A stretch of 64,000 bases of DNA, from contig JARLJI010000080.1 of NCBI GenBank assembly GCA_031291295.1, forward strand, positions 62,001 through 126,000. The letters are read 5' to 3'. Made by a program: the position numbers and the translations under genes. The notes below the pieces were generated by a model. That model saw only the letters and a program-made list of their open reading frames with translations, searched no databases and was not told where the DNA came from. Source of the stretch: Rhodoferax sp. GTDB lineage: Bacteria > Pseudomonadota > Gammaproteobacteria > Burkholderiales > Burkholderiaceae_C. Below, piece by piece: positions 16,475-30,919 of this stretch (position 1 is its first letter; every line of letters starts with the position of its first letter).

Positions 16475-18145
16475 ATGACCCACACGACTGTCTACCCCGC
16501 CCGCAAGATCATCACGATGAACCCGATGCAGCCCGAGGCCACGCACGTCGCCGTACGTGACGGGCGTATCCTCTCGGTCGGCGACCTGGCGCGCATGCAG
16601 GCCTGGGGCGCGTACACGCTCGACGAACGCTTCGCGGGCAAGGTGCTGATGCCCGGCCTGGTCGAAGGCCACTGCCACCTCAAGGAAGGCAGCATGTGGG
16701 ACATGCACTACCTCGGCTGGTTCGACCGGCGCGATCCGCAAGGCAAGGTCTGGAGCGGCCTGCGCTCGATGGACGCGGTGGTGGCGCGCCTGGCCGAGAT
16801 CGACACGCAAATGCGCTCCGCCGGCAAGGGGGATACGGAGCCGCTGATCGCCTGGGGGTTCGATCCGATCTACTTCGGCGGCGAACGCATGACGGTCGAG
16901 CACCTCGATCGCGCGAGCGCCACGCGGCCCATCGTCATCGCGCACGCCAACGGCCATCTGATGAACGTGAACTCGGCGATGCTGCGGCTGGCCGACGTCA
17001 CGCATGACAACGAGGTCGAAGGCGTGGTCAAGTTCCAGGGCGGTGCCAACGCCGGCGAGCCCACCGGCGAGCTGCAGGAGCCGGCCGCGATGTTCCTGGT
17101 GGTGCGCAAGATCGGCGACGCCGGCCTGCTCGCGCCGATGACCGAAGCGGGCGTGCGCTCGTTTGCCGCACTCGCCTGCATGCAGGGTGTGACGACCGCG
17201 ACCGACCTCGTGAACAAGCTCACCGACGCGGATTGCAAGGTGCTCGAGTCGGCGCTGGCCGATGACGCTTGCAGCATTCGCATCCTGCCCGCGTTCCAGG
17301 CCTTTCACGGCACGCACGGTGCGGCCCTCGGCGCCGAGCACGTCAAAAGCCTGCTGCCCCGCAACACCGACCGGCTGCGCTACGGCCTGGTCAAGATGAT
17401 GCTCGATGGCTCGATCCAGGGCTTCTCGGCGCGGCTGCGCTGGCCCGGGCACTTCAACGGTGCGCCGAACGGCATCTGGGTCACTGCGCCGGCGCAGTAC
17501 GAGGCCGACTTCGAGACCTACCACCGCGCGGGCCTGTTGATCCACACCCACACCAACGGCGACGAGGCCAGCGAGGTCGCGATCGACGCGATCGAGCGGG
17601 TGCTGACGCGCGCGCCGCGGCCCGATCACCGCCACACCTTGCAGCACGGCCAGATGATCGATGCACCGCTGTTTCGCCGCATGGCCGCGCTCGGCCTGTG
17701 TGCCAACCTGTTCACCAACCACCTCTGGTACTGGGGCGACCAGCACTACGAGATGACCATGGGCCCGGATCGCGCCAACCGGCTCGATGCCTGCGCCAGC
17801 GCGCTGGCGGCCGGCGTGCCGCTGGCGATCCACTCCGATGCGCCGGTCACGCCGCTGGGCCCCTTGTTCACGGCGTGGTGCGCGGTGAACCGCGTCACCC
17901 CTTCGGGGCGCGTGCTCGGCGAGGCCGAGCGTATCAGCGTACCGCAGGCGTTGCATGCCATCACGTTGGGCCCGGCCTGGACGCTCAAGCTCGACCACGA
18001 GATCGGCAGCATCGAATGCGGCAAGCGGGCCGACTTCTGTGTGCTCGAGGACGATCCGCTCGCGGTGGAGCCGATGGCACTCAAAGACGTGCGCGTGTGG
18101 GGCACCGTGCTGTCCGGACGTGTGTTCGAGGCGCGCAAGAGTTGA
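16475..18145 (+). CDS. YtcJ-like metal-dependent amidohydrolase
   Basis: A 556-residue enzyme of the amidohydrolase superfamily, Amidohydro_3/YtcJ branch. The metal-binding HxH is in MPGLVEGHCHLKEG, later ligands in LLIHTHTNGDEASEV and RHTLQHGQMID, and the last conserved Asp in IHSDAPVTPLGP. There is no signal peptide, so it acts in the cytoplasm on what the preceding importer brings in. The family cleaves amides, N-acyl or N-formyl groups and ring amides. Given the TauR-like operator of the operon, hydrolysis of an N-acyl taurine or similar conjugate is a reasonable but unproven guess. Confidence 0.82.
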   Translation: MTHTTVYPARKIITMNPMQPEATHVAVRDGRILSVGDLARMQAWGAYTLDERFAGKVLMPGLVEGHCHLKEGSMWDMHYLGWFDRRDPQGKVWSGLRSMDAVVARLAEIDTQMRSAGKGDTEPLIAWGFDPIYFGGERMTVEHLDRASATRPIVIAHANGHLMNVNSAMLRLADVTHDNEVEGVVKFQGGANAGEPTGELQEPAAMFLVVRKIGDAGLLAPMTEAGVRSFAALACMQGVTTATDLVNKLTDADCKVLESALADDACSIRILPAFQAFHGTHGAALGAEHVKSLLPRNTDRLRYGLVKMMLDGSIQGFSARLRWPGHFNGAPNGIWVTAPAQYEADFETYHRAGLLIHTHTNGDEASEVAIDAIERVLTRAPRPDHRHTLQHGQMIDAPLFRRMAALGLCANLFTNHLWYWGDQHYEMTMGPDRANRLDACASALAAGVPLAIHSDAPVTPLGPLFTAWCAVNRVTPSGRVLGEAERISVPQALHAITLGPAWTLKLDHEIGSIECGKRADFCVLEDDPLAVEPMALKDVRVWGTVLSGRVFEARKS

Positions 18146-18152
18146 GGCTCGA

Positions 18153-19136
18153 ATGACGAAGAAGCGCCTGCCGCTGACGGTCATCGGCGGCTTTCTGGGC
18201 GCCGGCAAGACGACCTTGCTGAACCACTGGCTGCACAACGCCAGGGGAGTGCGCATGGCGGTGCTGGTGAACGACTTCGGCGCCATCAACATCGATGCGG
18301 GGTTGATCGAAGCGACGTCGGGGGACACGGTGGCACTGACCAACGGCTGCGTCTGCTGCCAGATCGGAGACGACCTGACGAGCGCATTGATCCGCGTGCT
18401 CGACGCGACACCGCCATTCGACGCGGTCGTGGTCGAAGCCAGTGGCGTCTCCGATCCGTGGCGCATCGCGCAGATGGGCCGCGCCGACCCCGGGCTGAGC
18501 CTGGACGGCGTGATCGTGCTGGTGGATGCAAGTGCCGCGCTGGCGCAGTCGCGCGACCCCTTGCTGGCCGACACTCTGGAGCGCCAGCTGAAGGCGGCCG
18601 ACCTGATTGTCGTCAATCAATGCGACCGCGTGACAGACGACGAGCGCGCCCGCGTGCGCGACTGGATCGCCTCGATCGCCGGAGCCACGCCGCAGTTTGA
18701 AACCACCCAGGCGCGCGTGCCGCTGCCGATGCTCAGCGGCCTGGCACTGCCCGACATGCCGCTGGCGCCGGCGTCTGCGCCGGCGCACTGTGATTCGCAC
18801 AAGCACGCCGATGGTGCGCACGAACACGAACACGGCGACCCGGCCCATGGCGCGTTGTTCGACACGTGGTCGTGCCGCCCGGCGCGGGTGTTCTCGAGCA
18901 CGGCGCTGCGCGCCTGGCTGACCGAGCCGCCGACCGGCCTCCTGCGACTGAAAGGCGTGCTGCGCACCGGGGCACAAGACAGCGACAGCACATGGTCGGA
19001 ACTGCAATTCGCCGGCCGCCATGGCACGCTGCGCACGGTCCCGGCTCCCGTAGCAGGCCCGGCGCTGGTGGCGATTGGCTTGCGCGGCCGGCTGCCCGTG
19101 GCGGCGCTGTCGGCACTGTTCGATGCACCCGGCTGA
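18153..19136 (+). CDS. COG0523/CobW-family GTPase with His-rich segment
   Basis: A 327-residue G3E-type GTPase. Walker A GGFLGAGKTTLL is at residues 12-23, the metal motif CVCC at 66-69 and the guanine motif VVNQCDRV in the middle. A histidine-rich linker (HCDSHKHADGAHEHEHGD) precedes the C-terminal CobW domain. Proteins of this group deliver zinc, cobalt or other metals to client enzymes. It starts seven bases after the amidohydrolase stop, and that enzyme needs metal, so it is the likely client. There is no cobalamin gene nearby. The start was placed at the ATG before MTKKRLPLTVIGG; longer frames upstream overlap the amidohydrolase. Confidence 0.84.
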   Translation: MTKKRLPLTVIGGFLGAGKTTLLNHWLHNARGVRMAVLVNDFGAINIDAGLIEATSGDTVALTNGCVCCQIGDDLTSALIRVLDATPPFDAVVVEASGVSDPWRIAQMGRADPGLSLDGVIVLVDASAALAQSRDPLLADTLERQLKAADLIVVNQCDRVTDDERARVRDWIASIAGATPQFETTQARVPLPMLSGLALPDMPLAPASAPAHCDSHKHADGAHEHEHGDPAHGALFDTWSCRPARVFSSTALRAWLTEPPTGLLRLKGVLRTGAQDSDSTWSELQFAGRHGTLRTVPAPVAGPALVAIGLRGRLPVAALSALFDAPG

Positions 19137-19169
19137 AGCCCGGCGCCGCCCGGCGGCCATTCCAGCGGG

Positions 19170-19937
19170 TCACTTCATGACCAGTCCACCATCGACAAAT
19201 AGGGTTTGTCCGGTCATGAATCGGCTCCAATCCGATGCCAGAAACAAGACAGGACCAGCCACATCCTCGGGCGTGGCAATCCGGCGCAAAGGCGTCTGGG
19301 CCGTGATCATGTCTTTGACCTCCTCCTTGGTCTGACGGCTCGCTGCCGTGGGATAGACCAGTCCGGGTGCCACACTGTTGACGCGAATTCCCAAGGGGCC
19401 AAGCTCGGCCGCCAGGTTGCGGCCGAAGCCGATCAGTGCTGATTTGGCGGTCGTGTAGTCGTGATAGGGGACGGTGGGGCGTTCGACCAGGTCGCTCACC
19501 ATGTTGACGATGCTTCCCTGTCCGCGTTTCCTGAAATGGGGAAGGACGGCTTGGCAGACGTTGTAGGTCGAGCGCAGCGCGCCATCCAGCTGGCGCTGAT
19601 AGTCGGCCCACGCCAGTTCCCAAAACATGGTCCGCTGATCCGGATCAAAGCTGTAGGCCGCGAAAGCATTGTTGACCAGCACATCTATTTTCCCCATCTC
19701 GAGGAGCACCTGCTCCACCATGCTGCGCACCGCAGGCTCGGACGTGACGTCGGCCTGAATGGCCCAGGCGTCGCCGCCCATCTGCTTGCAAGCATCGACC
19801 ACGGTCGTGGCCGCGGCCGCATCTTGCAGATAATTGACAACAACCGTGGCGCCCTCCTGGGCAAAAGCCCGCGCAATCGCAGCGCCGATGCCCCGACTGG
19901 CACCCGTCACGAGAACGACTTTGCCCTTGAATTTCAT
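19170..19937 (-). CDS. Short-chain dehydrogenase/reductase in the TPP-riboswitch operon
   Basis: A 255-residue classical SDR. The NAD(P) motif TGASRGIGAAIA is near residues 11-22, VNNAF replaces the usual NNAG, and the catalytic YxxxK is in YHDYTTAKSALIGFG. The end FVDGGLVMK is FabG-like. It is the last gene of the operon that begins with a TPP riboswitch, 14 bases after the binding-protein gene. If the LuxE-LuxC pair yields an aldehyde, this enzyme could reduce it to an alcohol. The opposite direction, or a fatty-acid role, is possible. The family is certain; the substrate is not known. Confidence 0.8.
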   Translation of the reverse strand: MKFKGKVVLVTGASRGIGAAIARAFAQEGATVVVNYLQDAAAATTVVDACKQMGGDAWAIQADVTSEPAVRSMVEQVLLEMGKIDVLVNNAFAAYSFDPDQRTMFWELAWADYQRQLDGALRSTYNVCQAVLPHFRKRGQGSIVNMVSDLVERPTVPYHDYTTAKSALIGFGRNLAAELGPLGIRVNSVAPGLVYPTAASRQTKEEVKDMITAQTPLRRIATPEDVAGPVLFLASDWSRFMTGQTLFVDGGLVMK

Positions 19938-19951
19938 GGCATCAATCGTCC

Positions 19952-20950
19952 CTATTTCTGCGGCAGCAGGTCTTGCCGAACGACGTCGGACACCTTGATG
20001 TCGCGTTGAATCAAACCCAGCTTCTCATAAGTGTCGGCAGCTTTCTGCAAAACTGCCATGTCAAAAGAACCCAGGCCATGGAGATTTGTCGCGGCCGACA
20101 CACTCGACAGGTTGCGCAACTGGATCACTTCGCGGTTGATTGCCTGGTTCTTGCCATCGATCGCGCGTTTGACGGCCAGCGCTGCTGCCTCGTCGGGGTT
20201 CTTGATCATCCAGGCCGCACTGTCGCGGTACGCTGCAAGAAAACGTTTTAAGAGATCTTTCTTGTTTTGGTACGTGTCTTCGGTGACCACAAAGATGTCG
20301 CTGGGAATGTTCAGATAGTTCCGGACTTCGATGACATTGACGTCACCCAACCCCTTTTGTTTGCCTACGAGCAAACCGGTATCCGTTGCAGCAGTCGCAT
20401 CCACTTGACCTTGAATCAGGGGGGCAAAATTCAACAAACCCGTGACCACGATCGTGACATCTGCTTCGGTCAAACCAGCCTGATGCAGTAGCACCAGCAG
20501 GTTTTGGCGAGTTCCGCTTGACAGACTGTAGACACCAATTTTCTTGCCCTTCAGGTCTGCGGGTTTAGTGATGTTGCTGCCCTTGAGCGAGACCACATTG
20601 AAGACGTTTTGCGGATAGATGTCGTAAATCGCACGCAATTTTTCACCCTTGTCCAGGGCGGCAAAAAATGAACCCGGATCGGTAAAGGCCACCGTTGCCT
20701 GCCCCGTCAACATGTTTCGAATGGCGTCCCCTCCCCCCGCGCCCGGTACATAGGTCAGATCCAGCCCCCTGGCTTTGAAGAACCCCTTGTCTTGCTCAAC
20801 CAGCAGATTGGTGATTTCTGTAATGGGTTGACTCCAGCCTGCGACAGTGATCATGTCCACTTCGCCGGCTTGACTGACGCTGGTCGCGCCCAGAGAGACC
20901 AGCGCCGTAACAACAAAAGCAAGCATGAATTGTGTGACGGACCGTTTCAT
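19952..20950 (-). CDS. NMT1/THI5-type ABC transporter binding protein (thiamine-precursor-like)
   Basis: A 332-residue periplasmic binding protein with a signal peptide ending near SVSQAG. The mature part has the NMT1/THI5 fold pattern: WSQPITEITNLLVEQDKGFF, GGGDAIRNMLTGQATVAF and LKGKKIGVYSLSSGTR. ThiY proteins of this family bind pyrimidine precursors of thiamine; SsuA and TauA are cousins. The TPP riboswitch ahead of the operon favours a thiamine-related ligand. The start at 20950 follows AAAGGAATAAAG. It overlaps neither neighbour but is only four bases from the permease stop. Confidence 0.8.
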   Translation of the reverse strand: MKRSVTQFMLAFVVTALVSLGATSVSQAGEVDMITVAGWSQPITEITNLLVEQDKGFFKARGLDLTYVPGAGGGDAIRNMLTGQATVAFTDPGSFFAALDKGEKLRAIYDIYPQNVFNVVSLKGSNITKPADLKGKKIGVYSLSSGTRQNLLVLLHQAGLTEADVTIVVTGLLNFAPLIQGQVDATAATDTGLLVGKQKGLGDVNVIEVRNYLNIPSDIFVVTEDTYQNKKDLLKRFLAAYRDSAAWMIKNPDEAAALAVKRAIDGKNQAINREVIQLRNLSSVSAATNLHGLGSFDMAVLQKAADTYEKLGLIQRDIKVSDVVRQDLLPQK

Positions 20951-20954
20951 TTCT

Positions 20955-21734
20955 TTATTCCTTTTCTCTATTTTTAAGATGAGGCAACAGCAATAGCCGC
21001 TCAATCGCAATCGCCATCTGATAAACCATTAACCCCAACACAGTAATGATCAAGAGCACGGCGAACATGAGGGGGGTATCCATCATGCCCTGAGAAGCGA
21101 TGATCAACGCCCCCAAACCTTTGCTGCCACCAATGAACTCCCCGACGACCGCGCCCACGAGGGCCAGCACGACGGCCACCCGGAATCCCGCCATGATGCC
21201 CGGCAATCCCGAGGGGATCTTCAAACGCAGCAGGGTCTGCAGGCGTGTCGCTCCCAACATCCGGAATAGCTCGTGTTTTTGGGGGTCGACCTGTTGCAAA
21301 CTGGTTAGCGTGTTTTCCATCAACGGGAAAAAGCAGATCAGCGCCGTGATGACCACGGTCGATTTCATGCCGAATCCAAACCAGACGATAAAGAGTGGCG
21401 CCAATGCCAATTTGGGGACCACCTGGCTGACGACCACATAGGGAAATAGAAGAGACCGCAAAAATTCGGACTCCCCCATCACAACCCCACACAGGAACCC
21501 GACCACACAACCAATCGTCAGGCCCAGAACCAGTTCGGTGCCCGTCTGCACAAGATGCGGCCAGTAATAGCCCGTCTTGACGCCGCTCCAAAGCGCATGC
21601 AGCACCGCAGACGGGGCCGGCAGCACCAGCGCCGACATGTTCGACACGCGAGAAAACAACTCCCATCCCACTATCAGGCTGATGAAAAGCGCCCAGGCAC
21701 AAATACGGCTCGTGTTGGCGCGGCTCATCTTCAT
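20955..21734 (-). CDS. ABC transporter permease of the TPP-riboswitch operon
   Basis: A 259-residue BPD_transp_1 permease with about six membrane segments (VVSQVVPKLALAPLFIVWFG in the coupling loop region). It resembles ThiX/SsuC permeases. The start at 21734 forms an ATGA overlap with the ATPase gene; a second ATG lies six bases further. It pairs with the ATPase upstream and the NMT1-type binding protein downstream, so the set is a complete importer. Confidence 0.82.
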   Translation of the reverse strand: MKMSRANTSRICAWALFISLIVGWELFSRVSNMSALVLPAPSAVLHALWSGVKTGYYWPHLVQTGTELVLGLTIGCVVGFLCGVVMGESEFLRSLLFPYVVVSQVVPKLALAPLFIVWFGFGMKSTVVITALICFFPLMENTLTSLQQVDPQKHELFRMLGATRLQTLLRLKIPSGLPGIMAGFRVAVVLALVGAVVGEFIGGSKGLGALIIASQGMMDTPLMFAVLLIITVLGLMVYQMAIAIERLLLLPHLKNREKE

Positions 21735-22477
21735 GCAGTGACGTCGTCCATGGCCTGGCGGACCTGAGAACACAGGGCGTTGAACTGGGCGCCATAACGC
21801 ACATCTCGTCTGCGAGGCCGGGGCAAATCGACTGGCAGGTCTTCACTGATCTGCCCTTGCGCCATCACGGCAACCCGATCCGCCAGATACACGGCTTCGC
21901 CGATGTCGTGCGTCACAAAGAACACAGTCGTTTGACCCAGGCGGCAGATTTTCAGGAAGTCATCCTGCAGCTCCTCCCGGGTGATCGCATCAAGGGCAGC
22001 AAAGGGTTCATCCAGCAACAAGAGCGCCGGCTCCAGGATAAGGGCTCGTGCTATCGCGACCCTGCTCTGCTGCCCTCCGGATAATTCGGTTGGGTAGCGT
22101 GCGCAGCAGTCGGACAGGCCCATGAGCTCAAGCAACTTTTCGGCTCTCGCCCGGTCCTGGGTTAAGGGTTTGCGCTGAAGTGAAATCGGTAAAAGAACGT
22201 TGTCAATCACTTTGTGCCATTCGAGCAAGGTGGGTGACTGGAAAACAAAACCCAACTGGCTGCCTGGCTTCAAAAGGCTTTTCCCATCCAGCGTGATCGA
22301 CCCAAAATCCGGCAACAAGAGACCAGCAGCCAGCTTTAGCAGCGTGGTTTTGCCACAGCCACTGCGACCCACCAGACAATGGAACTCTCCTCGCTCGATG
22401 TTCCAGTCAACCTGATGGACAACTTTCATCTGTCCCCGGTAGGTATAGCTCACATGGTGCATGTCCAGGAAGCTCAT
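21731..22477 (-). CDS. ABC transporter ATPase of the TPP-riboswitch operon
   Basis: A 248-residue ATPase with Walker [13 protein letters not shown], signature LSGGQQSRVAIARAL, Walker B LLLLDEPFAALDAITR and the switch histidine in FFVTHDIGEA. It is of the ThiZ/SsuB/TauB branch. Its ATG lies nine bases after the stop of the LuxC-like gene, so the transporter and the reductase genes are read together. Codon use is less GC-rich than in tauB. Confidence 0.84.
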   Translation of the reverse strand: MSFLDMHHVSYTYRGQMKVVHQVDWNIERGEFHCLVGRSGCGKTTLLKLAAGLLLPDFGSITLDGKSLLKPGSQLGFVFQSPTLLEWHKVIDNVLLPISLQRKPLTQDRARAEKLLELMGLSDCCARYPTELSGGQQSRVAIARALILEPALLLLDEPFAALDAITREELQDDFLKICRLGQTTVFFVTHDIGEAVYLADRVAVMAQGQISEDLPVDLPRPRRRDVRYGAQFNALCSQVRQAMDDVTA

Positions 22478-22486
22478 ACCGGATTC

Positions 22487-23941
22487 CTAGTCAACATACG
22501 GCGCGAAGGTTTCCGAAGCAGCCTCGGCCGATGCCTCGACGTCGACTGTGTAGGTGAGGTCCAGCAAACCAGGGCGTCCATCGTGGTGCCAGCCAGCCTC
22601 TGGGGCCGTCATTTGCCCAACCGCGCTGATGCGCGTGACACCGGCTCGTCCCAATAATTCTGCCAGCTCAAAAAGTTCACGTGGCGCAGCCGCCAAACCG
22701 ACCGTTTGCAAAAACGATCTATGCCGTGCGATCAGGGGGATGACCTGCCCCAGTTGGTCGACGGCCGCCACCCTGACCGTCCGGTTCAACCCGCTCGGCG
22801 TCAGTTCCTGCACGGCGTCGTTGTAAACAACTGTCCAGGGGCCGTCACCCACCACATCCGACCCCGGTTGTGAAACACTTTTGAGTTCTTCACGTTGACG
22901 CCAGTCGGCAACGCTTGCGGACTCCTCCAGACTCAGGGTGCGCCGCGGAAACTTTCGCTCAAAACACGAGAGTTCATTGGCGAGATAGCGCGAAAACGCC
23001 TCAGGGGTTATTTTTCCTCCCCGCTCCACATAGAACACGTGGGGCGAGTAACAGCCCTGCTGGTCGTATCGCATCACATCGTAAGCAGCCTGCTGTGCGG
23101 TCTTCGAGGCCTTGCTGGCATCCAGCGCTTTCTTTGAAATCATGCCCAGACTGAGTTTGTGGCCATAGGGCAAAAACCGCGTGGTGATGGGTACCTGACG
23201 GCGGACCTGTTCCAGCGAGGCGCTTCCGCCGTAAGCGAGCACCAGGTCGGCTTGCTGGAAGAAATGCTTTTCACGCGCCTCGTCACCCCCCTTCCACCAC
23301 ACCACCGCAAAGCAATTGGCCAGCAGGGGGTCCAATTCAACCAGCAGTTGTGCAAACCAGCCAGCAAAAAGAGGCTCCGTACTCGCGACCTTGCCAATCG
23401 TGCCCGACTTCACCAGCAATCCGGAAATCAGGCTCCACAATGATAGGCCGGGCACATTGCCCGCCCAGACGTGGACCGCCAGATCGACACCAAAGGCCTT
23501 GGAAAATCCGCCTTTCGGGCGCGGCTGAAACTCATCGAGCAATTGCGGATTGCCGAAATCCTCGACTACAAAGCGCTGCAACTGCGGTCGGCGGAATGTT
23601 TTCAAATAACTGGTCAAGCCAAGGCGAACCATTTCAGGGTCGTACCCCGTCACAAGAGGCAACAACGCATCTGCCTTTTGACGATAGGGGTCCTTTGGAT
23701 CCAGCAGCCGCGCTATCGCCTGGTCCACAATCGATACGATCTGGGCCACCGTCAGCGACTTCAGGTACGAACGGCTCGCTTGTTTGACCCTTGCTATCAA
23801 CGCGATGGCTTGGTCATCGCCTAGAACAGGCACGGCGACTTCAAGGGGCTGGTCCTTGCTGCCGAAGGTGAGCGTCTGCCATTGCACCTCCTCTGCCTTG
23901 AGACCCGGAAGGTAGCCGGCCATCTCGCGAATCGGCATCAT
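22487..23941 (-). CDS. LuxC-family acyl reductase in the TPP-riboswitch operon
   Basis: A 484-residue protein of the LuxC acyl-CoA reductase family (PF05893). The catalytic cysteine is C297 in MRYDQQGCYSPHVFYVE, the region matching the LuxC active site. FGVDLAVHVWAGNVPGLSLW is the conserved central block, and GRAGVTRISAVGQM near the end is also typical. LuxC takes an acyl group from LuxE onto cysteine and reduces it with NADPH to an aldehyde. Here there are no luciferase genes (luxA, luxB), so light production is not the role. The start ATG at 23941 overlaps the luxE-like stop (ATGA). The combination with a TPP riboswitch suggests reduction of a thiamine-related acid. Confidence 0.82.
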   Translation of the reverse strand: MMPIREMAGYLPGLKAEEVQWQTLTFGSKDQPLEVAVPVLGDDQAIALIARVKQASRSYLKSLTVAQIVSIVDQAIARLLDPKDPYRQKADALLPLVTGYDPEMVRLGLTSYLKTFRRPQLQRFVVEDFGNPQLLDEFQPRPKGGFSKAFGVDLAVHVWAGNVPGLSLWSLISGLLVKSGTIGKVASTEPLFAGWFAQLLVELDPLLANCFAVVWWKGGDEAREKHFFQQADLVLAYGGSASLEQVRRQVPITTRFLPYGHKLSLGMISKKALDASKASKTAQQAAYDVMRYDQQGCYSPHVFYVERGGKITPEAFSRYLANELSCFERKFPRRTLSLEESASVADWRQREELKSVSQPGSDVVGDGPWTVVYNDAVQELTPSGLNRTVRVAAVDQLGQVIPLIARHRSFLQTVGLAAAPRELFELAELLGRAGVTRISAVGQMTAPEAGWHHDGRPGLLDLTYTVDVEASAEAASETFAPYVD

Positions 23942-25017
23942 CCTAAAGCCGCTCGCAGAAATTCTTCTACGGCAAGTGAGCATCCTTTGGCCGCGCTGCC
24001 TTGCGCGCGCCCCAGCAAGAGGAAGCCCGAGTTCACTGCGACACCCACGTCCTCGGTCAGAATGGTGGTGACCGAATTGAAGTTGGCCAGATCGCAATGG
24101 ACCAGAATCCCGCGCTCACCACGCGGCACCTCTTTTCCATTCAAGGGATCCACCACTCGGGATCTGATCCAGTGAGGGCCGGTCTTGACAGCTGGAAGAA
24201 CTGCATTGCCCGAGTCGTAAAACTGCGTGCTAAGTTCGGTCATGCCATACATATTGATGCATTGACTTCTTTCGATGGCCAGCACAGAGGAAAGCTGCGC
24301 ATAGAAATCCTCCATGGAAAGTTCACGCGACAGTCCCTTGAATCCACCCGTATCCAACACCCTGCTGCCCTGCGGCAAAACAAAGGATTTTCCCAATTTG
24401 TGCAGTTCATCCAAAAGGTGCACGAAGCTATAACTCGCCCCCAACAGGGCATAGGGCTCCGCGACACGCTCAGCTCGCTCCAGTTCGGCGATGAGGCGCA
24501 CGATGTCCAGCCCCTCTCGCGCCAAAAGATAGTGACTCTCCTGCGCGCCGAACTCCTTGACCGCGAGCGCCAGATAGTGCGCCAGAGACGAATTCGGCAT
24601 CAGCGTTTCCGTTGGGAAGAGAACACCCATGCGGATCTTCTCGCGGCCTTGCATGAACCTCTGCCTGAAATTTTTCGTCATCGAGTAATCGTAGACCGAC
24701 AGGGTGGGATGGTGATGCTTTCCCTTGACGTCGCCTTGCGTCGTGCCGCTGGTCATGAAGATGCGCTCTGCGTCATTCGCAGGAACACAACTCAAGGTCA
24801 ACTCCTTGAACCCATCGATGGGAACCGCTGGAATATCCCGCCAGTTTTTCACGGCGCGTACGGTCTTGCCTCGCTGCTGGCAGAAACGCTGAAAAGGCGG
24901 GTTATGTTGATATTGATACGCAAACAACTTCAACGCTTGCTGATCAAACTCGTCCTCTGACGAATGATCTGCGGCCATATAAGCCAGCAGACCGTCGATC
25001 ACGGCAGCTTGGGTCAT
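23938..25017 (-). CDS. LuxE-family acyl-protein synthetase in the TPP-riboswitch operon
   Basis: A 359-residue adenylate-forming enzyme of the LuxE family. The ATP motif TSGTTQG is at residues 89-95, MYGMTE at 256-261, and the acyl-accepting cysteine C346 sits in AAKGCSLAVEEF near the C-terminus, as in LuxE. It would activate a free carboxylic acid with ATP, hold it as thioester and pass it to the LuxC-like partner. It is the first gene after the TPP riboswitch, with 119 bases of leader between aptamer and ATG. The ATG at 25017 was preferred over a TTG at 25089, which falls inside the proposed expression-platform hairpin. The acid it uses cannot be told from sequence. Confidence 0.82.
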   Translation of the reverse strand: MTQAAVIDGLLAYMAADHSSEDEFDQQALKLFAYQYQHNPPFQRFCQQRGKTVRAVKNWRDIPAVPIDGFKELTLSCVPANDAERIFMTSGTTQGDVKGKHHHPTLSVYDYSMTKNFRQRFMQGREKIRMGVLFPTETLMPNSSLAHYLALAVKEFGAQESHYLLAREGLDIVRLIAELERAERVAEPYALLGASYSFVHLLDELHKLGKSFVLPQGSRVLDTGGFKGLSRELSMEDFYAQLSSVLAIERSQCINMYGMTELSTQFYDSGNAVLPAVKTGPHWIRSRVVDPLNGKEVPRGERGILVHCDLANFNSVTTILTEDVGVAVNSGFLLLGRAQGSAAKGCSLAVEEFLRAALG

Positions 25018-25068
25018 TTTGAGCCTGCCTGCAGCAAAAAGTTGTCGAACGCATTCACTGTCATCACT

Positions 25069-25103
25069 CTTTCGGTTGCCTGATTGCAAATTTGCTCCGA
25101 AAG
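25069..25103 (-). promoter_or_regulatory. Hairpin in the riboswitch leader (candidate expression platform)
   Basis: CTTTCGG at 25069-25075 pairs with CCGAAAG at 25097-25103, and the loop contains a second palindrome GCAAATTTGC (25086-25095). The structure lies between the TPP aptamer and the luxE-like start, with a T5 run (minus strand) about 30 bases further on. It may be the switching hairpin; whether it controls termination or translation is unclear. Confidence 0.45.
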
Positions 25104-25136
25104 ATGCGGCGGGCGCTTATGGCATGTCCCAAGGCA

Positions 25137-25234
25137 GCTCTTCTTACGTCGGCATGATCCGATTCAAGTTCGCGGGTTTGGTTCTGACCATCTCAGCCAC
25201 CCTTGTCGTCACCGACAAGACTGCACCCCGGAGC
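25137..25234 (-). ncRNA. Thiamine pyrophosphate (THI-box) riboswitch
   Basis: Read on the minus strand the segment has, in order, every conserved block of the TPP aptamer. P1 is GCTC (25231-25234) with GAGC (25137-25140). Then come CGGGGTGC, a perfect P3 hairpin CTTGTCG-GTGA-CGACAAG (25202-25219), GGCTGAGA (CTGAGA at 25191-25196), ACCCGCGAAC, and the P5 hairpin TCGGATCATGCCGA followed by CGTAAG. This matches the E. coli thiM element block for block; the main departures are TTGAATCGG for CTGATCTGG and GTAAGAAG for GTAGGGAAG. It leads the operon of luxE, luxC, ABC transporter and SDR genes, so that operon should be turned off by TPP. Confidence 0.93.
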
Positions 25235-25286
25235 ACTAGGAATTCTAGCGGAATCGTGAATCAACACTGCCGATCCCAATCACACC

Positions 25287-26210
25287 TCAGGACACAACCT
25301 GGTAGTACAGGTTCTGCGGGTGCTTTGCTTGCGCGAAGAAGAACCAGCGCTCAGCCAGCAGTCCAGGCGCCTGCACCAGAACCGCCAGCACCCAGGCCAG
25401 CGCGCCACCACCGGCCAGGCCCCACAGCGCCAACGCAGCCGGCAGCATGAAGCCCAGCATGATGAAGGCCAGCTTCACGTGTTTCAGCGCCGAGAGCGTA
25501 CGGCCATGAAAAAACTCTCGCGTGTTGAATGAACCGGCGGACATACCCATCGATTTCTGCACGATGGTCGTGGACTTGATGCCGGTGGCAGACTGCAAGG
25601 TCGACTTGTGCTTTAACGCGGCGTTGCGGCGCAGGGCCAGCATACGCGTGGCCCAAGCCACCAGTGTCACGACCAGCGCACACGGACCGGCCAATTGCAC
25701 GAGGCGTATCTCGCCAGCGAGCGAGCCCAACGCGCACGTCAGCACCAGGCCCGACGACAAGCCGATCAGCACAAAATTCACCAGCGTCAGTGGTTGCGCC
25801 CATTCCTCGATGAAGCGCAGGCAGGCGTAAATCATTGCGGTGCAGTACCACAGCAGCGCGGCGAGAACAATCGCAACCAGGGGCAGCAACGGCGTGTCGA
25901 TCCCGCTGCGCAGCGCCAGCCACCACAACACATTGATGCCGATAAAGGTCGGCAGCACAATCACCTCACGCGACAACCAGGAGGTGCGCCACATCATCGC
26001 CGCGCGCCATGCGCGCTCGGGACGGCCGAGGTGCCCGAAGGAGGCGCCCAAGCCGATCAGCAGCATGACCACGGCAGTGATGATCGCGAGACTCATGAAA
26101 CCACCAGTCAGCGGCAGGCCTGCAAGCAGTGCGAGCGCAAGCGTCACGATCAGTCCCTGCGCGGCGCCGGCAATTGTTGTGAAAACCACAACCGAGAATG
26201 CTGGCTTCAT
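25287..26210 (-). CDS. soeC: Membrane anchor of sulfite dehydrogenase, DmsC-like
   Basis: A 307-residue protein with eight or so hydrophobic segments, of the DmsC/NrfD-type anchor family. It holds the catalytic subunits on the cytoplasmic face and passes electrons to quinone. The start at 26210 is set by the ATGA overlap with soeB. It is the last gene of the minus-strand soeABC set. In a cluster with xsc and pta, a three-subunit molybdoenzyme of this build is best read as SoeABC, which oxidises the sulfite released by Xsc. On its own it could belong to DMSO, tetrathionate or polysulfide reductases. Confidence 0.8.
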   Translation of the reverse strand: MKPAFSVVVFTTIAGAAQGLIVTLALALLAGLPLTGGFMSLAIITAVVMLLIGLGASFGHLGRPERAWRAAMMWRTSWLSREVIVLPTFIGINVLWWLALRSGIDTPLLPLVAIVLAALLWYCTAMIYACLRFIEEWAQPLTLVNFVLIGLSSGLVLTCALGSLAGEIRLVQLAGPCALVVTLVAWATRMLALRRNAALKHKSTLQSATGIKSTTIVQKSMGMSAGSFNTREFFHGRTLSALKHVKLAFIMLGFMLPAALALWGLAGGGALAWVLAVLVQAPGLLAERWFFFAQAKHPQNLYYQVVS

Positions 26211-26980
26211 GGCTCGCCCTTCGCGTGGGTGTCGCCCGCCGCCCCGGTAATGCGCCGCGGCAGATATTGATTGGCCGGCTGCGTCTCCCACTCCGGCATC
26301 AACGAATAGCCACCGCGCTCGCGGATAGCGATCGACACTTCGGAGTTGGGGTCCTTCACGTCACCGAACAAGCGCGCTCCCGTTGGACAGGCCTTCACGC
26401 ATGCGGGTTTGCGGTCTTCCTTGGGCAAATTCTCGTCGTAGATGCGATCAACGCACAAAGTGCACTTGGTCATTACCTGGCGCTCTTCATCGATCTCGCG
26501 CGCACCGTAAGGACAAGCCCATGCGCAGTACTTGCAGCCAATGCACTTGTCGTAGTCGACCAGCACAATGCCGTCCTCCTTGCGTTTGTAGCTCGCGCCG
26601 GTCGGGCACACCGGCACGCATGGTGGATCTTCGCAATGCAGGCAGCTTTTCGGAAAGTGGATCGTCTCGGTGCCGGGAAAACTGCCGGCCTCGTAGGTTT
26701 GCACGCGATTAAAAAAGGTGCCGGTCGGGTCAGCGCCGTAGGCGTGCTCATCGACCAACGGGCCGGCCGACCCCGAGGTGTTCCATTGCTTGCATGAGGT
26801 TACGCAGGCGTGGCAGCCAACGCAGACGTTCAGGTCGATCACCAGCGCAAGTTGCTTGGCCAGCGTCTCGCCTGGCTCGGCGCGCACTCTGGTTGCAGTC
26901 TTGGGCGGTGCCGTAACGGCGCGGGCCGGGGCTTCGGTGACGGCATTGCGCTTGATCAGCTCTTGGAGCCAGTGGATCAT
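26207..26980 (-). CDS. soeB: Iron-sulfur subunit of sulfite dehydrogenase
   Basis: A 257-residue ferredoxin-like subunit with four cysteine groups for four [4Fe-4S] clusters: CVGCHACVTSC, CLHCEDPPCVPVC, CIGCKYCAWAC and CTLC followed by CVKAC. It links the molybdenum subunit SoeA with the membrane anchor SoeC. There is no signal peptide, so it is cytoplasmic. It overlaps both neighbours by ATGA, showing strict co-translation. Confidence 0.85.
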   Translation of the reverse strand: MIHWLQELIKRNAVTEAPARAVTAPPKTATRVRAEPGETLAKQLALVIDLNVCVGCHACVTSCKQWNTSGSAGPLVDEHAYGADPTGTFFNRVQTYEAGSFPGTETIHFPKSCLHCEDPPCVPVCPTGASYKRKEDGIVLVDYDKCIGCKYCAWACPYGAREIDEERQVMTKCTLCVDRIYDENLPKEDRKPACVKACPTGARLFGDVKDPNSEVSIAIRERGGYSLMPEWETQPANQYLPRRITGAAGDTHAKGEP

Positions 26981-29931
26981 GATTTTTTCGCCCCCCTCAG
27001 CCGAGCCTTGAATTCGCCCTGCCCGGCAAAATATGCCTGGAACACGCGCTTCACAGTGTTAGTCGCGCCGGGTAACACAGGCATCGCATCGAACTGCGGC
27101 AACGTAGTGCGGGCATCCGCCTCGGCGGGATAGACCCGCACCCGCACGTCGTACCACGCCGCCTGCCCGGTGATGGGATCGGAATTCGACACCCGCCCAT
27201 GCGCGGCCGGTAACTCGTCGGAGATCAGGTGGTTCAGCAGGAAGCCCCGCTGCGATTCGTTCGCGTCAGGGCCCAGGTTCCACGCGCCGGCGGCCTTGCC
27301 AATCGCGTTCCAGGTCCACACAGTGCCGGGCTCGACCGCTTCGCTGTAGCGGGCCATGCACCGAACCTTGCCCCACTGCGACTCGACGTAGATCCAGCCA
27401 CCGTCTTCGATACCCGCGGCAGCGGCCATACCCGGATTCACGAACAGGTAGTTCTCGGCGTGGATCTGGCGCAACCAGGCGTTTTGCGAATCCCAAGAGT
27501 GGTACATCGCCATCGGCCGCTGGGTGATCGCCGCCAGCGGATACTTCGCCATCTCGATAACGTCGTGCTCAAGCGGCTCGTACCAGAATGGCAGCGGGTC
27601 GAAATGGCGCACGATCCGTTCGCGCAGATGGTCGGGCGGCTGGCGTCCACGCGTCTTGCCCTGTGCGGCGAGACGAAATTTCTGCATGACGTCCGAATAC
27701 AGCTGGATGACGATCGGCTCCTTGAACTTGCGCATCCCATTGTCCTGCGCCCATTGCAAGTAAGGGCCATTGCAGTTGCGCATGTACTGCAGCGATTCGT
27801 CCATCGTGTGATGAAACACGCAGTTGTTCTTCGCGTACTGTTCCCACTGATTCGGGTTCGGCTCGCCGACAAGCGCCTTGTCTCCGTTCTTGCCGCGCCA
27901 GCCGATCAGAAAGCCCGTACCGGAATCCGGGGCGGTCTGAAAGTTGACGATGAAATCGGGATAGTCCTTGAACTTGCGTGTGCCGTCGACGGCGGTAAAA
28001 GCCGGGAATTTCAGGCGACCCGCCAGTTCGATCAACACCTCCTGGAACGGCTTGCATTCGCCGGCGCGCGGCACAACCGGCACGCGCACCGAATCGACGG
28101 GGCCATCGAATTCGGAAATCGGCCGGTCGAGCATGGACATCGCGTCGTGCCGTTCGAGATAGGTCGTGTCGGGCAGGATCAGATCCGCGAATGCGGTCAT
28201 TTCCGACTGGAACGCGTCGCACACGACGATGAACGGGATTTTGTATTCCCCCTTACCAGGGCCGTCGTCGTGCTTGTCGTTCAGCATCTGGCGGACTTCC
28301 ACGGTGTTCATCGACGAGTTCCACGCCATGTTCGCCATGAAGATCATCAACGTGTCGATCGGGTAAGGGTCGCCGCGCCATGCATTGGTGATGACGTTAT
28401 GCATCAGCCCGTGCACGGCGAGTGGGTATTCCCATGAAAACGCCTTGTCGATACGCATTGGGCCGCCATCGGCGTCAATGAACAAGTCTTCCGGCGCCGC
28501 CGGCCAGCCCAGCGGCCCCACCGGCAGCGGAGTGTTCGGTTGAACCTGGTCCGGACTGTTCGGTGGTTTGGCCGAGGGCGGCACCGCACGCGGGTAAGGC
28601 GCCTTATGGCGAAAGCCGCCGGGCCGGTCGATCGTGCCGAGCAGCGACATCAGTACCGCCAGTGCGCGAATCGTCTGGAAACCATTCGAATGCGCCGCGA
28701 GGCCGCGCATCGCGTGAAACGCCACCGGGTTGCCGGTAACGGTGTCATGGGTCTCGCCCCACGCGTCGGTCCAGCGTATGGGTAATTCGATCTTGTGGTC
28801 GCGTGCGGCAACGCCCATTTCGAGCGCAAGGCGCCGAATGGTGGCAGCCGGAATGCCGGTAATGCCTTCCGCCCATTCCGGCGTGCAGCTTTGGACCTGT
28901 TCCTGCAGCAACTGGAATGCGGGCTTGACAGGCGTGCCACCGGGCAGCGTGAATTCGCCCGTCAGGCATGGGTCGGCGCCGGGTGTATGGGTCTTGACCG
29001 GGCGCCCGGTATGGCGATCCCACCACATCTTGTTTTGCGGGTAGAGCGCATTGCCCACGGGACTCGCATCGTCCTGCACGAACAGGCCGAAGACGTCGCT
29101 GGCCGAATCCGCGTTGACCAGTTCCCCCGCGTTTGAATAGCGTGCGATGAACGGCTGGTCGTAGAGACCTTTGGCGATCAGTTCGTGGATCAGCGCCATA
29201 AAGAGGGCGCCATCGGTGCCTGGACGAATCGGCACCCACTCGTCGGCAATCGCCGAGTAGCCGGTGCGTACCGGGTTGATCGATACAAACCGGCCGCCCG
29301 CGCGCTTGAACTTCGACAGGGCGATCTTGAGTGGGTTCGAATGGTGATCTTCGGCGGTGCCGATCATGACGAAGAGTCGGGCGCTGTCGAGATCGGGGCC
29401 GCCAAATTCCCAGAACGACCCGCCAATCGTATAGATCATGCCGGCCGCCATGTTGGACGAACAAAAGCCGCCGTGCGCCGCATAGTTGGGCGTGCCGAAC
29501 TGCTTGGCGAAGAGGCCTGTCAGCGCCTGCATCTGATCGCGTCCGGTGAAGAGCGCGAAGCGCTTGGGGTCGGTGGCCCGAATGTGCGCGAGACGTTTTT
29601 CCAGGATGTCAAATGCCTCATCCCATGAGATGGGCTCGAACGCCGCCGCCCCCCGCTCGGCATCCGCTTTGCGCCGTAGTGGCTGGGTGAGCCGCGCGGG
29701 CGAGTATTGCTTCATGATGCCCGACGACCCTTTCGCGCAGATCACGCCCTGATTCAACGGGTGGTTCGGGTTGCCGTCGATATAGCGCACCTCGCCATCG
29801 CGCAAGTGCACGCGGATGCCGCAGCGGCAGGCGCACATGTAGCAGGTGGTGGTCTTGACCTCGGTGTTTGCCGTCGGCGTCGGCGATGCGAGCGGGTTGT
29901 GCAGCGGTTCGCTAGAGAGAAACTTGAACAC
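26977..29931 (-). CDS. soeA: Molybdopterin subunit of cytoplasmic sulfite dehydrogenase
   Basis: A 984-residue molybdopterin oxidoreductase of the DMSO reductase superfamily. An N-terminal [4Fe-4S] motif uses C30, C33, C37 and C65 (CYMCACRC, then GVICAKG); the molybdopterin guanine dinucleotide domains and the C-terminal binding domain follow. No twin-arginine signal precedes the cysteines, so the enzyme faces the cytoplasm, as SoeA does, unlike periplasmic SorAB or DMSO reductase. I chose a GTG at 29931, preceded by GGAG and lying two bases beyond the pta stop; longer frames overlap pta. Reaction: sulfite plus quinone to sulfate. It removes the toxic product of Xsc. Confidence 0.83.
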   Translation of the reverse strand: MFKFLSSEPLHNPLASPTPTANTEVKTTTCYMCACRCGIRVHLRDGEVRYIDGNPNHPLNQGVICAKGSSGIMKQYSPARLTQPLRRKADAERGAAAFEPISWDEAFDILEKRLAHIRATDPKRFALFTGRDQMQALTGLFAKQFGTPNYAAHGGFCSSNMAAGMIYTIGGSFWEFGGPDLDSARLFVMIGTAEDHHSNPLKIALSKFKRAGGRFVSINPVRTGYSAIADEWVPIRPGTDGALFMALIHELIAKGLYDQPFIARYSNAGELVNADSASDVFGLFVQDDASPVGNALYPQNKMWWDRHTGRPVKTHTPGADPCLTGEFTLPGGTPVKPAFQLLQEQVQSCTPEWAEGITGIPAATIRRLALEMGVAARDHKIELPIRWTDAWGETHDTVTGNPVAFHAMRGLAAHSNGFQTIRALAVLMSLLGTIDRPGGFRHKAPYPRAVPPSAKPPNSPDQVQPNTPLPVGPLGWPAAPEDLFIDADGGPMRIDKAFSWEYPLAVHGLMHNVITNAWRGDPYPIDTLMIFMANMAWNSSMNTVEVRQMLNDKHDDGPGKGEYKIPFIVVCDAFQSEMTAFADLILPDTTYLERHDAMSMLDRPISEFDGPVDSVRVPVVPRAGECKPFQEVLIELAGRLKFPAFTAVDGTRKFKDYPDFIVNFQTAPDSGTGFLIGWRGKNGDKALVGEPNPNQWEQYAKNNCVFHHTMDESLQYMRNCNGPYLQWAQDNGMRKFKEPIVIQLYSDVMQKFRLAAQGKTRGRQPPDHLRERIVRHFDPLPFWYEPLEHDVIEMAKYPLAAITQRPMAMYHSWDSQNAWLRQIHAENYLFVNPGMAAAAGIEDGGWIYVESQWGKVRCMARYSEAVEPGTVWTWNAIGKAAGAWNLGPDANESQRGFLLNHLISDELPAAHGRVSNSDPITGQAAWYDVRVRVYPAEADARTTLPQFDAMPVLPGATNTVKRVFQAYFAGQGEFKARLRGAKKS

Positions 29932-29932
29932 A

Positions 29933-30919
29933 TCAGCTCCTTGGCGGCTCGAGAGGGGTATCCAACGGGATTGACGCGAGCACCGCCAACGCCACCGATG
30001 CAATCCGCGAGTGCAGCGAGTCGGCACGCGACGTCAACACTATCGGCACTTTGGCCCCGAGCACCAAGCCTGCGCAGTCACCACCGCCGATGTAATTGAA
30101 GCTTTTGTACAGCATATTGCCGGCATTGAGATCCGGCATCAGCAACAGGTCTGCATCGCCACTGACCTGAGAGTCGATCTTCTTGATGCGCGCCGCCTCG
30201 GCAGAGATAGCATTGTCAAAACCGAACGGGCCTTCCACGATAGCGCCTGGCCACGCGCCCTGCCGCGCCATCTCGACCAGTGCCTGGGCGTCCATGGTGG
30301 CCGGAATCGCCGGGTTCACGGTTTCGACCGCCGCGACGATGGCGACTTTGGGATGCGCGACGCCGAGTCGTTGCAACAGCGCGATTGCGTTGCCGATGAT
30401 GTCGCGCTTGGTGGGCAGGTTGGGGGCGATGTTGACAACGCAGTCGGCGAGCGCGAGCAGCTTCGGATAGCGTGGCAAGTCAAACACGAACGCATGGCTG
30501 ATGCGCGTATTGCCGCGCAGTCCGGAATGCTTGTTCACGACCGCCGACATCAACTCGTCGGTATGCAACGAGCCCTTCATCAGTGCGCCAATCACACCCT
30601 CACGCGCCAGCATGGTCGCGCGCGACGCCGCTTCGGGACCTGCGTCAGCCGTATCAATGAGTTCGAATTGCGCCACGTCCACGCCAGCGGCGCTGGCCGC
30701 GCGGGCGATTGGCCCGGCGGGGCCGATCAGCACGGGCCGGGCAATGCCGACTGCAGCAATCTGCGCGGCCGCACCCAGCGCAAGTGCGTCGCACGGGCAT
30801 ACCAAACCCACAGCCGGCGCCTGAGTGCCAGCCCGCTGCCGTGCGCGCTCAACCAACTCGTGCAATCGGGGGTGCGTAGCGGCAGCGCTGCGCAGATCAG
30901 GAGATGCATGTTCATTCAT
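29933..30919 (-). CDS. pta: Phosphate acetyltransferase (single-domain)
   Basis: A 328-residue protein of the PTA_PTB family (PF01515), without the N-terminal domains of the long E. coli enzyme. KGSLHTDELMSAVVNK, AVETVNPAIPATMDAQAL and PDLNAGNMLYKSFNYIGG are typical blocks. It converts the acetyl phosphate made by Xsc to acetyl-CoA, and short Pta proteins regularly accompany xsc in sulfonate degraders. The stop codon lies two bases from the soeA start. A phosphate butyryltransferase is the alternative from sequence alone; the context decides for Pta. Confidence 0.85.
   Translation of the reverse strand: MNEHASPDLRSAAATHPRLHELVERARQRAGTQAPAVGLVCPCDALALGAAAQIAAVGIARPVLIGPAGPIARAASAAGVDVAQFELIDTADAGPEAASRATMLAREGVIGALMKGSLHTDELMSAVVNKHSGLRGNTRISHAFVFDLPRYPKLLALADCVVNIAPNLPTKRDIIGNAIALLQRLGVAHPKVAIVAAVETVNPAIPATMDAQALVEMARQGAWPGAIVEGPFGFDNAISAEAARIKKIDSQVSGDADLLLMPDLNAGNMLYKSFNYIGGGDCAGLVLGAKVPIVLTSRADSLHSRIASVALAVLASIPLDTPLEPPRS

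What the first reader, a model, noticed from the sequence alone, without database searches (positions are those of the whole stretch)
19170..25234. TPP-riboswitch operon joining LuxE-LuxC acid reduction, an NMT1/THI5-type importer and an SDR: a possible new thiamine-related salvage system
Seen: a TPP aptamer is followed on the same strand by tightly packed genes luxE-like, luxC-like, ABC ATPase, permease, binding protein and SDR. Both Lux proteins keep their acyl-carrying cysteines (C346 and C297), and no luciferase genes are present. Known: LuxE activates a free carboxylic acid and LuxC reduces it to an aldehyde; NMT1/THI5-type binding proteins take up thiamine pyrimidines; TPP riboswitches repress thiamine synthesis or uptake. 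Inference: the operon imports an oxidised thiamine fragment, such as the pyrimidine 5-carboxylate or thiazole acetate, and reduces it through the aldehyde to the alcohol (HMP or hydroxyethylthiazole) that ThiD or ThiM can use. I know of no described LuxE-LuxC system with this role.
Basis: partly seen in the sequence, partly recalled or inferred. Interest (0 to 1): 0.95.

Follow-up and report, generated by a model that had tools for sequence, protein, structure and literature searches.

The report
Vitamin B1 pyrimidine-acid salvage operon
A six-gene set behind a vitamin B1 sensor sequence, with relatives in two bacterial phyla, is predicted to take up an oxidised fragment of vitamin B1 and to reduce it, with relatives of the enzymes that fuel bacterial light, into the pyrimidine half of the vitamin; in some genomes that carry it, the usual gene for making that half was not found.

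Summary
Observation confirmed. A TPP aptamer (RF00059, 54.6 bits, cut-off 54.3) precedes luxE-luxC-ATPase-permease-ThiY-like binding protein-SDR. It is a conserved unit: LuxE has 359 relatives in a genome collection; of the best 80 loci, 80 have luxC next and 78 a TPP aptamer upstream. In a sample of 299 family genomes, 29 carry it, each with the aptamer. Transporters vary (ABC, nucleobase-type SLC23, or none); luxE-luxC-SDR stays. Evidence favours the pyrimidine: in that sample the operon occurs in 7 of 11 thiC-/thiG+ genomes, 22 of 204 with both genes, 0 of 80 with neither, 0 of 4 thiC+/thiG-. The binding protein's nearest solved structure is pyrimidine-binding ThiY; thiD can open the operon; in one thiC-less genome it runs into thiO-thiG-thiE. 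Best model: uptake of 4-amino-2-methylpyrimidine-5-carboxylate, activation by LuxE, reduction by LuxC to the aldehyde and by the SDR to HMP. The tie to thiamin pyrimidine supply is well supported; the exact acid and every enzyme activity are untested. Ten searches of an open-licence library gave no paper describing it.

The parts
25124..25240 (-). TPP riboswitch aptamer
   Evidence: RF00059 54.6 bits; R1 98 bits
23938..25017 (-). luxE-like acid-activating enzyme, 359 aa, C346
   Evidence: PF04443 87.8 bits; start as in orthologues
22487..23941 (-). luxC-like reductase, C296/C297
   Evidence: PF05893 306.1 bits; start ATGATG at 23941
21731..22477 (-). ABC transporter ATPase
   Evidence: PF00005
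20955..21734 (-). ABC transporter permease (start taken at the first ATG)
   Evidence: PF00528; frame
19952..20950 (-). NMT1/ThiY-like binding protein; N-terminus reads as a signal peptide (by eye)
   Evidence: PF09084; model nearest 3ix1
19170..19937 (-). short-chain dehydrogenase/reductase, Y161-K165
   Evidence: PF13561; Y161 and K165 invariant in 23 rows

Best explanation
This is a six-gene operon behind a TPP aptamer that likely imports an oxidised thiamin pyrimidine, most probably 4-amino-2-methylpyrimidine-5-carboxylate, and would reduce it to HMP, the alcohol from which the pyrimidine half of vitamin B1 is built. Steps: (1) when TPP is scarce the aptamer is free and the operon is expressed (inferred from the riboswitch class); (2) the ThiY-like binding protein, permease and ATPase take up the acid (inferred); (3) LuxE adenylates the acid and carries it as a thioester on C346 (inferred from LuxE chemistry); (4) the acyl group passes to LuxC C296, which reduces it with NADPH to the aldehyde (inferred); (5) the SDR reduces the aldehyde to HMP (inferred); (6) ThiD and ThiE finish as usual. 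Shown: the aptamer, the gene order and its conservation over two phyla, the cysteines, the ThiY-like predicted fold, and the link to genomes without thiC but with thiG. There the operon would stand in for ThiC; in genomes with thiC, as here, it would be a second source.
Against: No enzyme, uptake or riboswitch assay exists. The window's aptamer is barely over the cut-off, no expression platform or promoter was found. The host and 49 others of the 72 genomes have thiC matches, so the operon is often redundant. thiC loss alone is not more common in carriers (7 of 29 against 84 of 270). Four thiC-/thiG+ genomes lack the operon. In the order of G038, 6 of 14 carriers lack thiG as well. thiW/thiM stand next to the operon in six bacilli, and G020 is thiC+/thiG-. 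Several operons have no transporter gene. Many genomes are incomplete bins, and the Fisher test ignores kinship.
Confidence: 0.68

Rival explanations
1. Same operon logic, but the acid is an oxidised thiazole (4-methylthiazole-5-acetate), reduced to hydroxyethylthiazole for ThiM.
For: thiW and thiM lie next to the operon in six bacilli and thiM-thiD-thiE follow it in L069; G020 has thiC but no real thiG.
Against: 29 of 29 carriers in the family sample have thiG; 0 of 4 thiC+/thiG- genomes carry it. ThiY-like binding protein, nucleobase-type permease, thiD in front.
Confidence: 0.1
2. It serves the thiamin pyrimidine, but another way: the transporter brings HMP or an aminomethyl or formyl form, and LuxE-LuxC-SDR act on a different acid or only on an intermediate such as the aldehyde.
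For: ThiY of known structure binds a formylaminomethylpyrimidine, not an acid (title of 3ix1); the acid is inferred from LuxE chemistry only.
Against: luxE and luxC are the constant core even where the transporter changes or is absent, and both cysteines are kept, which fits acid reduction.
Confidence: 0.15
3. LuxE and LuxC reduce fatty acids, and the TPP control is incidental.
For: Databases name these proteins long-chain fatty acid-CoA ligase, acyl-CoA reductase and 3-oxoacyl-ACP reductase; known LuxE/LuxC reduce fatty acids.
Against: Far below the fatty-acid equivalogs: LuxE 69.7 of 550 bits, LuxC 105.1 of 750. Aptamer in 78 of 80 loci, thi genes in the operon, genotype link.
Confidence: 0.04

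Closest known systems
ThiXYZ/ThiY uptake with YlmB and TenA (FAMP salvage; YlmB step seen in passages of PMC10470507, the rest recalled)
   Same: TPP-controlled import of a thiamin pyrimidine by a related binding protein, then conversion to HMP
   Different: There hydrolysis of amide and amine; here, as predicted, reduction of a carboxylate by LuxE, LuxC and an SDR
luxCDABE fatty acid reductase (LuxC-LuxE, 7xc6)
   Same: LuxE and LuxC families with both acyl cysteines aligned
   Different: No luxA/B/D in the operon; far below the long-chain equivalog cut-offs; different control and partners
CytX/PLUTO-type HMP transport (PMC5874261, abstract and passages)
   Same: Nucleobase-type carrier clustered with thi genes in organisms without ThiC
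   Different: CytX/PLUTO is NCS1; the permease in L088-L090 is PF00860 (NCS2/SLC23) and comes with LuxE-LuxC-SDR
Non-luminous lux-like loci: flagellar glycosylation islands (PMC7874193, PMC4875605) and mel2 of Mycobacterium marinum (PMC1793995), seen as search listing with abstract starts
   Same: LuxE and/or LuxC relatives outside light production
   Different: No thiamin link in what I saw

Membership tests
TPP riboswitch RF00059 | Score over Rfam's gathering cut-off | tested here: met
   54.6 against 54.3 bits
TPP riboswitch RF00059 | Binds TPP and lowers expression | not testable with these tools
   no binding or expression data; leader fold no better than shuffles
LuxE family PF04443 | Profile match over cut-off and acyl cysteine | tested here: met
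   87.8 against 24.9 bits; C346 aligned with a LuxE cysteine
Long-chain fatty acid ligase LuxE (NF052244) | Equivalog cut-off 550 bits | tested here: not met
   69.7 bits
LuxC family PF05893 | Profile match over cut-off and acyl cysteine | tested here: met
   306.1 against 21 bits; C296 aligned with a LuxC cysteine
Long-chain acyl-CoA reductase LuxC (NF052251) | Equivalog cut-off 750 bits | tested here: not met
   105.1 bits
ThiY-type pyrimidine-binding protein | Fold of ThiY | tested here: met
ThiY-type pyrimidine-binding protein | Pyrimidine-binding residues | not tested
   pocket residues were not compared
THI5 HMP-phosphate synthase | Cysteine-rich active-site motif (recalled) | tested here: not met
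   the 332-aa binding protein has no cysteine; the three in the longer frame lie before its start
Thiamin pyrimidine salvage operon | Carried by genomes that lack thiC but keep the rest | tested here: met
   7 of 11 thiC-/thiG+ against 22 of 204 with both; the window's own genome has thiC
Thiamin pyrimidine salvage operon | Converts an external pyrimidine to HMP | not testable with these tools
   needs growth or enzyme assay

The most novel reading that the evidence does not exclude
LuxE-LuxC-SDR is a ThiC-independent source of the thiamin pyrimidine, spread over at least two phyla and on plasmids: bacteria live on a shared pyrimidine-carboxylate vitamer that vitamin B1 budgets do not count, use the acid-reduction chemistry known from bioluminescence, and can drop thiC while keeping the rest of B1 synthesis.
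Probability: 0.55. Interest if true: 0.92.

Novelty: new variant of a known kind. Interest (0 to 1): 0.88.

Why it matters
Presence of thiC is commonly used to decide whether an organism can supply its own thiamin pyrimidine. If this model holds, many thiC-less genomes use a further vitamer, an acid whose report as a thiamin metabolite in rat urine is cited in PMC7780320 (reference title), and many proteins now named as fatty-acid or bioluminescence enzymes belong to vitamin metabolism. It would give LuxE-LuxC a clear role outside light production. One growth assay and one enzyme assay can decide it.

Tried and rejected
Fatty-acid role: disfavoured on equivalog scores and thiamin context. Thiazole role: kept as a rival, disfavoured. 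THI5 enzyme role of the binding protein: rejected, no cysteine. The simple test 'carriers lose thiC more often' is not supported (7 of 29 against 84 of 270); only the combination thiC-/thiG+ is linked. Expression platform: leader fold no better than shuffles (z 0.94); no terminator-like site between aptamer and luxE and no promoter-like site in 18900-25600. Phages: no LuxE relative in 50,697 records.

Limits of the counts. The LuxC column is wrong (frame error of mine) and was redone. Model R1 has 8 base pairs only and acts mostly as a sequence profile; 9 of its 10 training aptamers come from the 80 loci, so 69 of the 78 hits are independent of training. Rfam itself was run on 9 of the 80 loci and on 71 of the genomes (70 with a TPP hit somewhere), whose places I matched to luxE by coordinates for a few only. 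The 80 loci are the best of 359, so the rest were not looked at. Rows for one search were dropped if they covered under 85% of the query or under 38% identity. Of 40 plasmid records listed (45 found), 27 have 41% identity or more; I opened seven of these, all with an aptamer-like hit upstream (two of the seven match part of the model only).

Literature: ten searches gave no listed paper that joins LuxE/LuxC with thiamin synthesis or a TPP riboswitch; this is an open-licence library only. Seen: passages of PMC3766115 and PMC10470507; abstract and passages of PMC5874261; a term search without hits in PMC5635689; one reference entry of PMC7780320; the rest as listings.

Full report
The observation. 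On the minus strand the window holds a TPP aptamer at 25240-25124, then luxE (25017-23938), luxC (from 23941 to 22487), an ABC ATPase (22477-21731), a permease (to 20955), an NMT1-type binding protein (20950-19952) and an SDR (19937-19170). The genes overlap or lie at most 14 bases apart; the aptamer ends 107 bases before luxE. The aptamer scores 54.6 bits against a cut-off of 54.3. The genome (265 contigs, 98.15% complete, 5.55% contamination) has two more TPP aptamers, one of them just before an open frame that I read as thiO, and its own thiC and thiG: the host should be able to make both halves of thiamin.

A conserved unit. A scan of genome contigs (84,980 species) gave 359 LuxE relatives; the best 80 were kept (61-80% identity). 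luxC follows luxE in 80 of 80; ATPase, permease, binding protein and SDR are found in 72, 70, 69 and 71. Thirteen loci miss something: nine run out of contig, and four alphaproteobacterial bins (L024, L040, L048, L068) have luxE-luxC-SDR without the ABC genes. A TPP aptamer lies upstream in 78 of 80; L083 has 76 bases of upstream sequence, and L058 shows 8.9 bits only. As these 80 were picked by similarity, I also took an evenly drawn sample of 299 family genomes, at least 90% complete: 29 carry LuxE at E 1e-80 or better, and Rfam's own model places a TPP aptamer upstream on the same strand in all 28 besides the window (matched by me by coordinates; 14 of the 28 are under the cut-off, at 47.9-54.2 bits; in two the aptamer lies 905 and 1000 bases upstream). 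A LuxE tree of 87 rows puts the 26 Bacillota rows in one supported group. Plasmid copies occur in Pantoea, Azospirillum, Priestia, Niallia and lactobacilli, among others.

Telling variation. In Niallia taxi and two lactobacilli an SLC23/NCS2 permease (PF00860; over the cut-off of NCBIfam's purine/pyrimidine permease NF037981, under those of the xanthine and uracil models) takes the place of the ABC genes, with the aptamer kept and LuxE at 49% and 41% identity. Pantoea dispersa and four alphaproteobacterial loci have no transporter gene next to luxE-luxC-SDR. The constant core is aptamer, luxE, luxC, SDR: acid to aldehyde to alcohol. thi genes join in: thiD between aptamer and luxE in 7 of 80 loci; thiM-thiD-thiE and thiW before luxE in 6; thiM-thiD-thiE right after the SDR in L069. 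L060 reads TPP-thiD-luxE-luxC-ABC-SDR-thiO-thiG-thiE-like. Thirteen-gene neighbourhoods aside, the clearest case is G267, 100% complete in 3 contigs and without a thiC match: TPP-luxE-luxC-ABC-SDR-thiO-thiG-thiE, all one way. In G381, TPP-thiC is followed directly by TPP-luxE.

Which half of thiamin? In 72 genomes (the window's and 71 operon genomes) no thiC match was found in 22 and no real thiG (my cut: over 250 bits, as PF05690 also picks up other barrels) in 4: thiC-/thiG+ 19, thiC-/thiG- 3, thiC+/thiG- 1, both 49. Some of the 50 thiC matches are in pieces (G021, G022, G048). The 19 include isolates (G039, G042, G055, and G064 with its luxE on a 4.46 Mb contig) and the chromosome-level bin G038. 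The control is the family sample: operon in 7 of 11 thiC-/thiG+, 22 of 204 thiC+/thiG+, 0 of 4 thiC+/thiG-, 0 of 80 with neither. Within thiG+ genomes Fisher p = 9e-5, not corrected for kinship; the seven lie in six genera. thiC loss by itself is not more common in carriers (7 of 29 against 84 of 270): most thiC-less genomes of the family lack thiG as well. In the order of G038, 14 of 20 genomes carry LuxE and 1 of 20 has thiC; of nine thiC-/thiG+ seven carry it, of ten with neither six do, so there it goes with missing thiC and not with thiG. A pyrimidine source explains these numbers; a thiazole source does not.

The enzymes. LuxE C346 and LuxC C296 are kept in at least 98% of 87 and 85 rows and align with cysteines of the solved complex. 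Both proteins fall far below the long-chain fatty-acid equivalogs. The SDR keeps Y161 and K165 in all 23 aligned rows. LuxE/LuxC and SDR chemistry is established knowledge, not tested here.

Mechanism and confidence. Uptake of 4-amino-2-methylpyrimidine-5-carboxylate, activation by LuxE, and reduction by LuxC to the aldehyde and by the SDR to HMP is the shortest path from an acid that such enzymes would take to the compound that ThiD needs. The acid was reported as a metabolite of thiamin in rat urine (Neal and Pearson 1964, title only, in the references of PMC7780320). I put the link to thiamin pyrimidine supply near 0.9 and the full mechanism with this acid at 0.68.

Novelty. A survey of TPP regulons (PMC3766115, passages) has no word beginning with 'lux' in its main text and says that thiamin and precursor transporters were not found in TPP regulons of Burkholderia and Ralstonia. 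The CytX/PLUTO paper (PMC5874261, abstract and passages) used the same reasoning, presence without ThiC, for HMP transport. Ten literature searches (listed under Tried and rejected) found no LuxE-LuxC system tied to thiamin. The regulatory logic is of a known kind; the enzyme set is new to it as far as I could see.

Noticed in passing
window 25287-30027 (-): A molybdopterin oxidoreductase-like gene set (catalytic subunit 26977-30027, iron-sulfur subunit 26207-26980, a third gene 25287-26291 without an NCBIfam match) ends 46 bases before the aptamer on the same strand, so read-through into the operon is possible.
   Followed up: partly
window 16475-19136 (+): An amidohydrolase-like gene (weak NCBIfam matches) and a CobW-type GTPase (below cut-off) run towards the operon from the other side.
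   Followed up: partly
L088 5697-5993; G272 contig 121, 13648-13876: Two aptamers in tandem: 85.0 and 72.9 bits before thiW in Niallia taxi; 61.1 and 31.1 bits before luxE in G272.
   Followed up: no
G048 contig 9 (genome of L058): thiC matches come in pieces in different frames behind a TPP aptamer: a decayed gene or assembly errors in an operon-bearing genome.
   Followed up: no
L040, L048, L065, after the SDR gene: A similar small protein with a signal-like start and several cysteines is encoded right after the SDR in three alphaproteobacterial loci (seen by eye).
   Followed up: no
G072, G098, G198, G321: Four family genomes lack a thiC match, keep thiG and do not carry this operon; their source of the pyrimidine was not examined.
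   Followed up: no
L095 (G381 contig 222): TPP-thiC and TPP-luxE stand one after the other on the same strand.
   Followed up: partly
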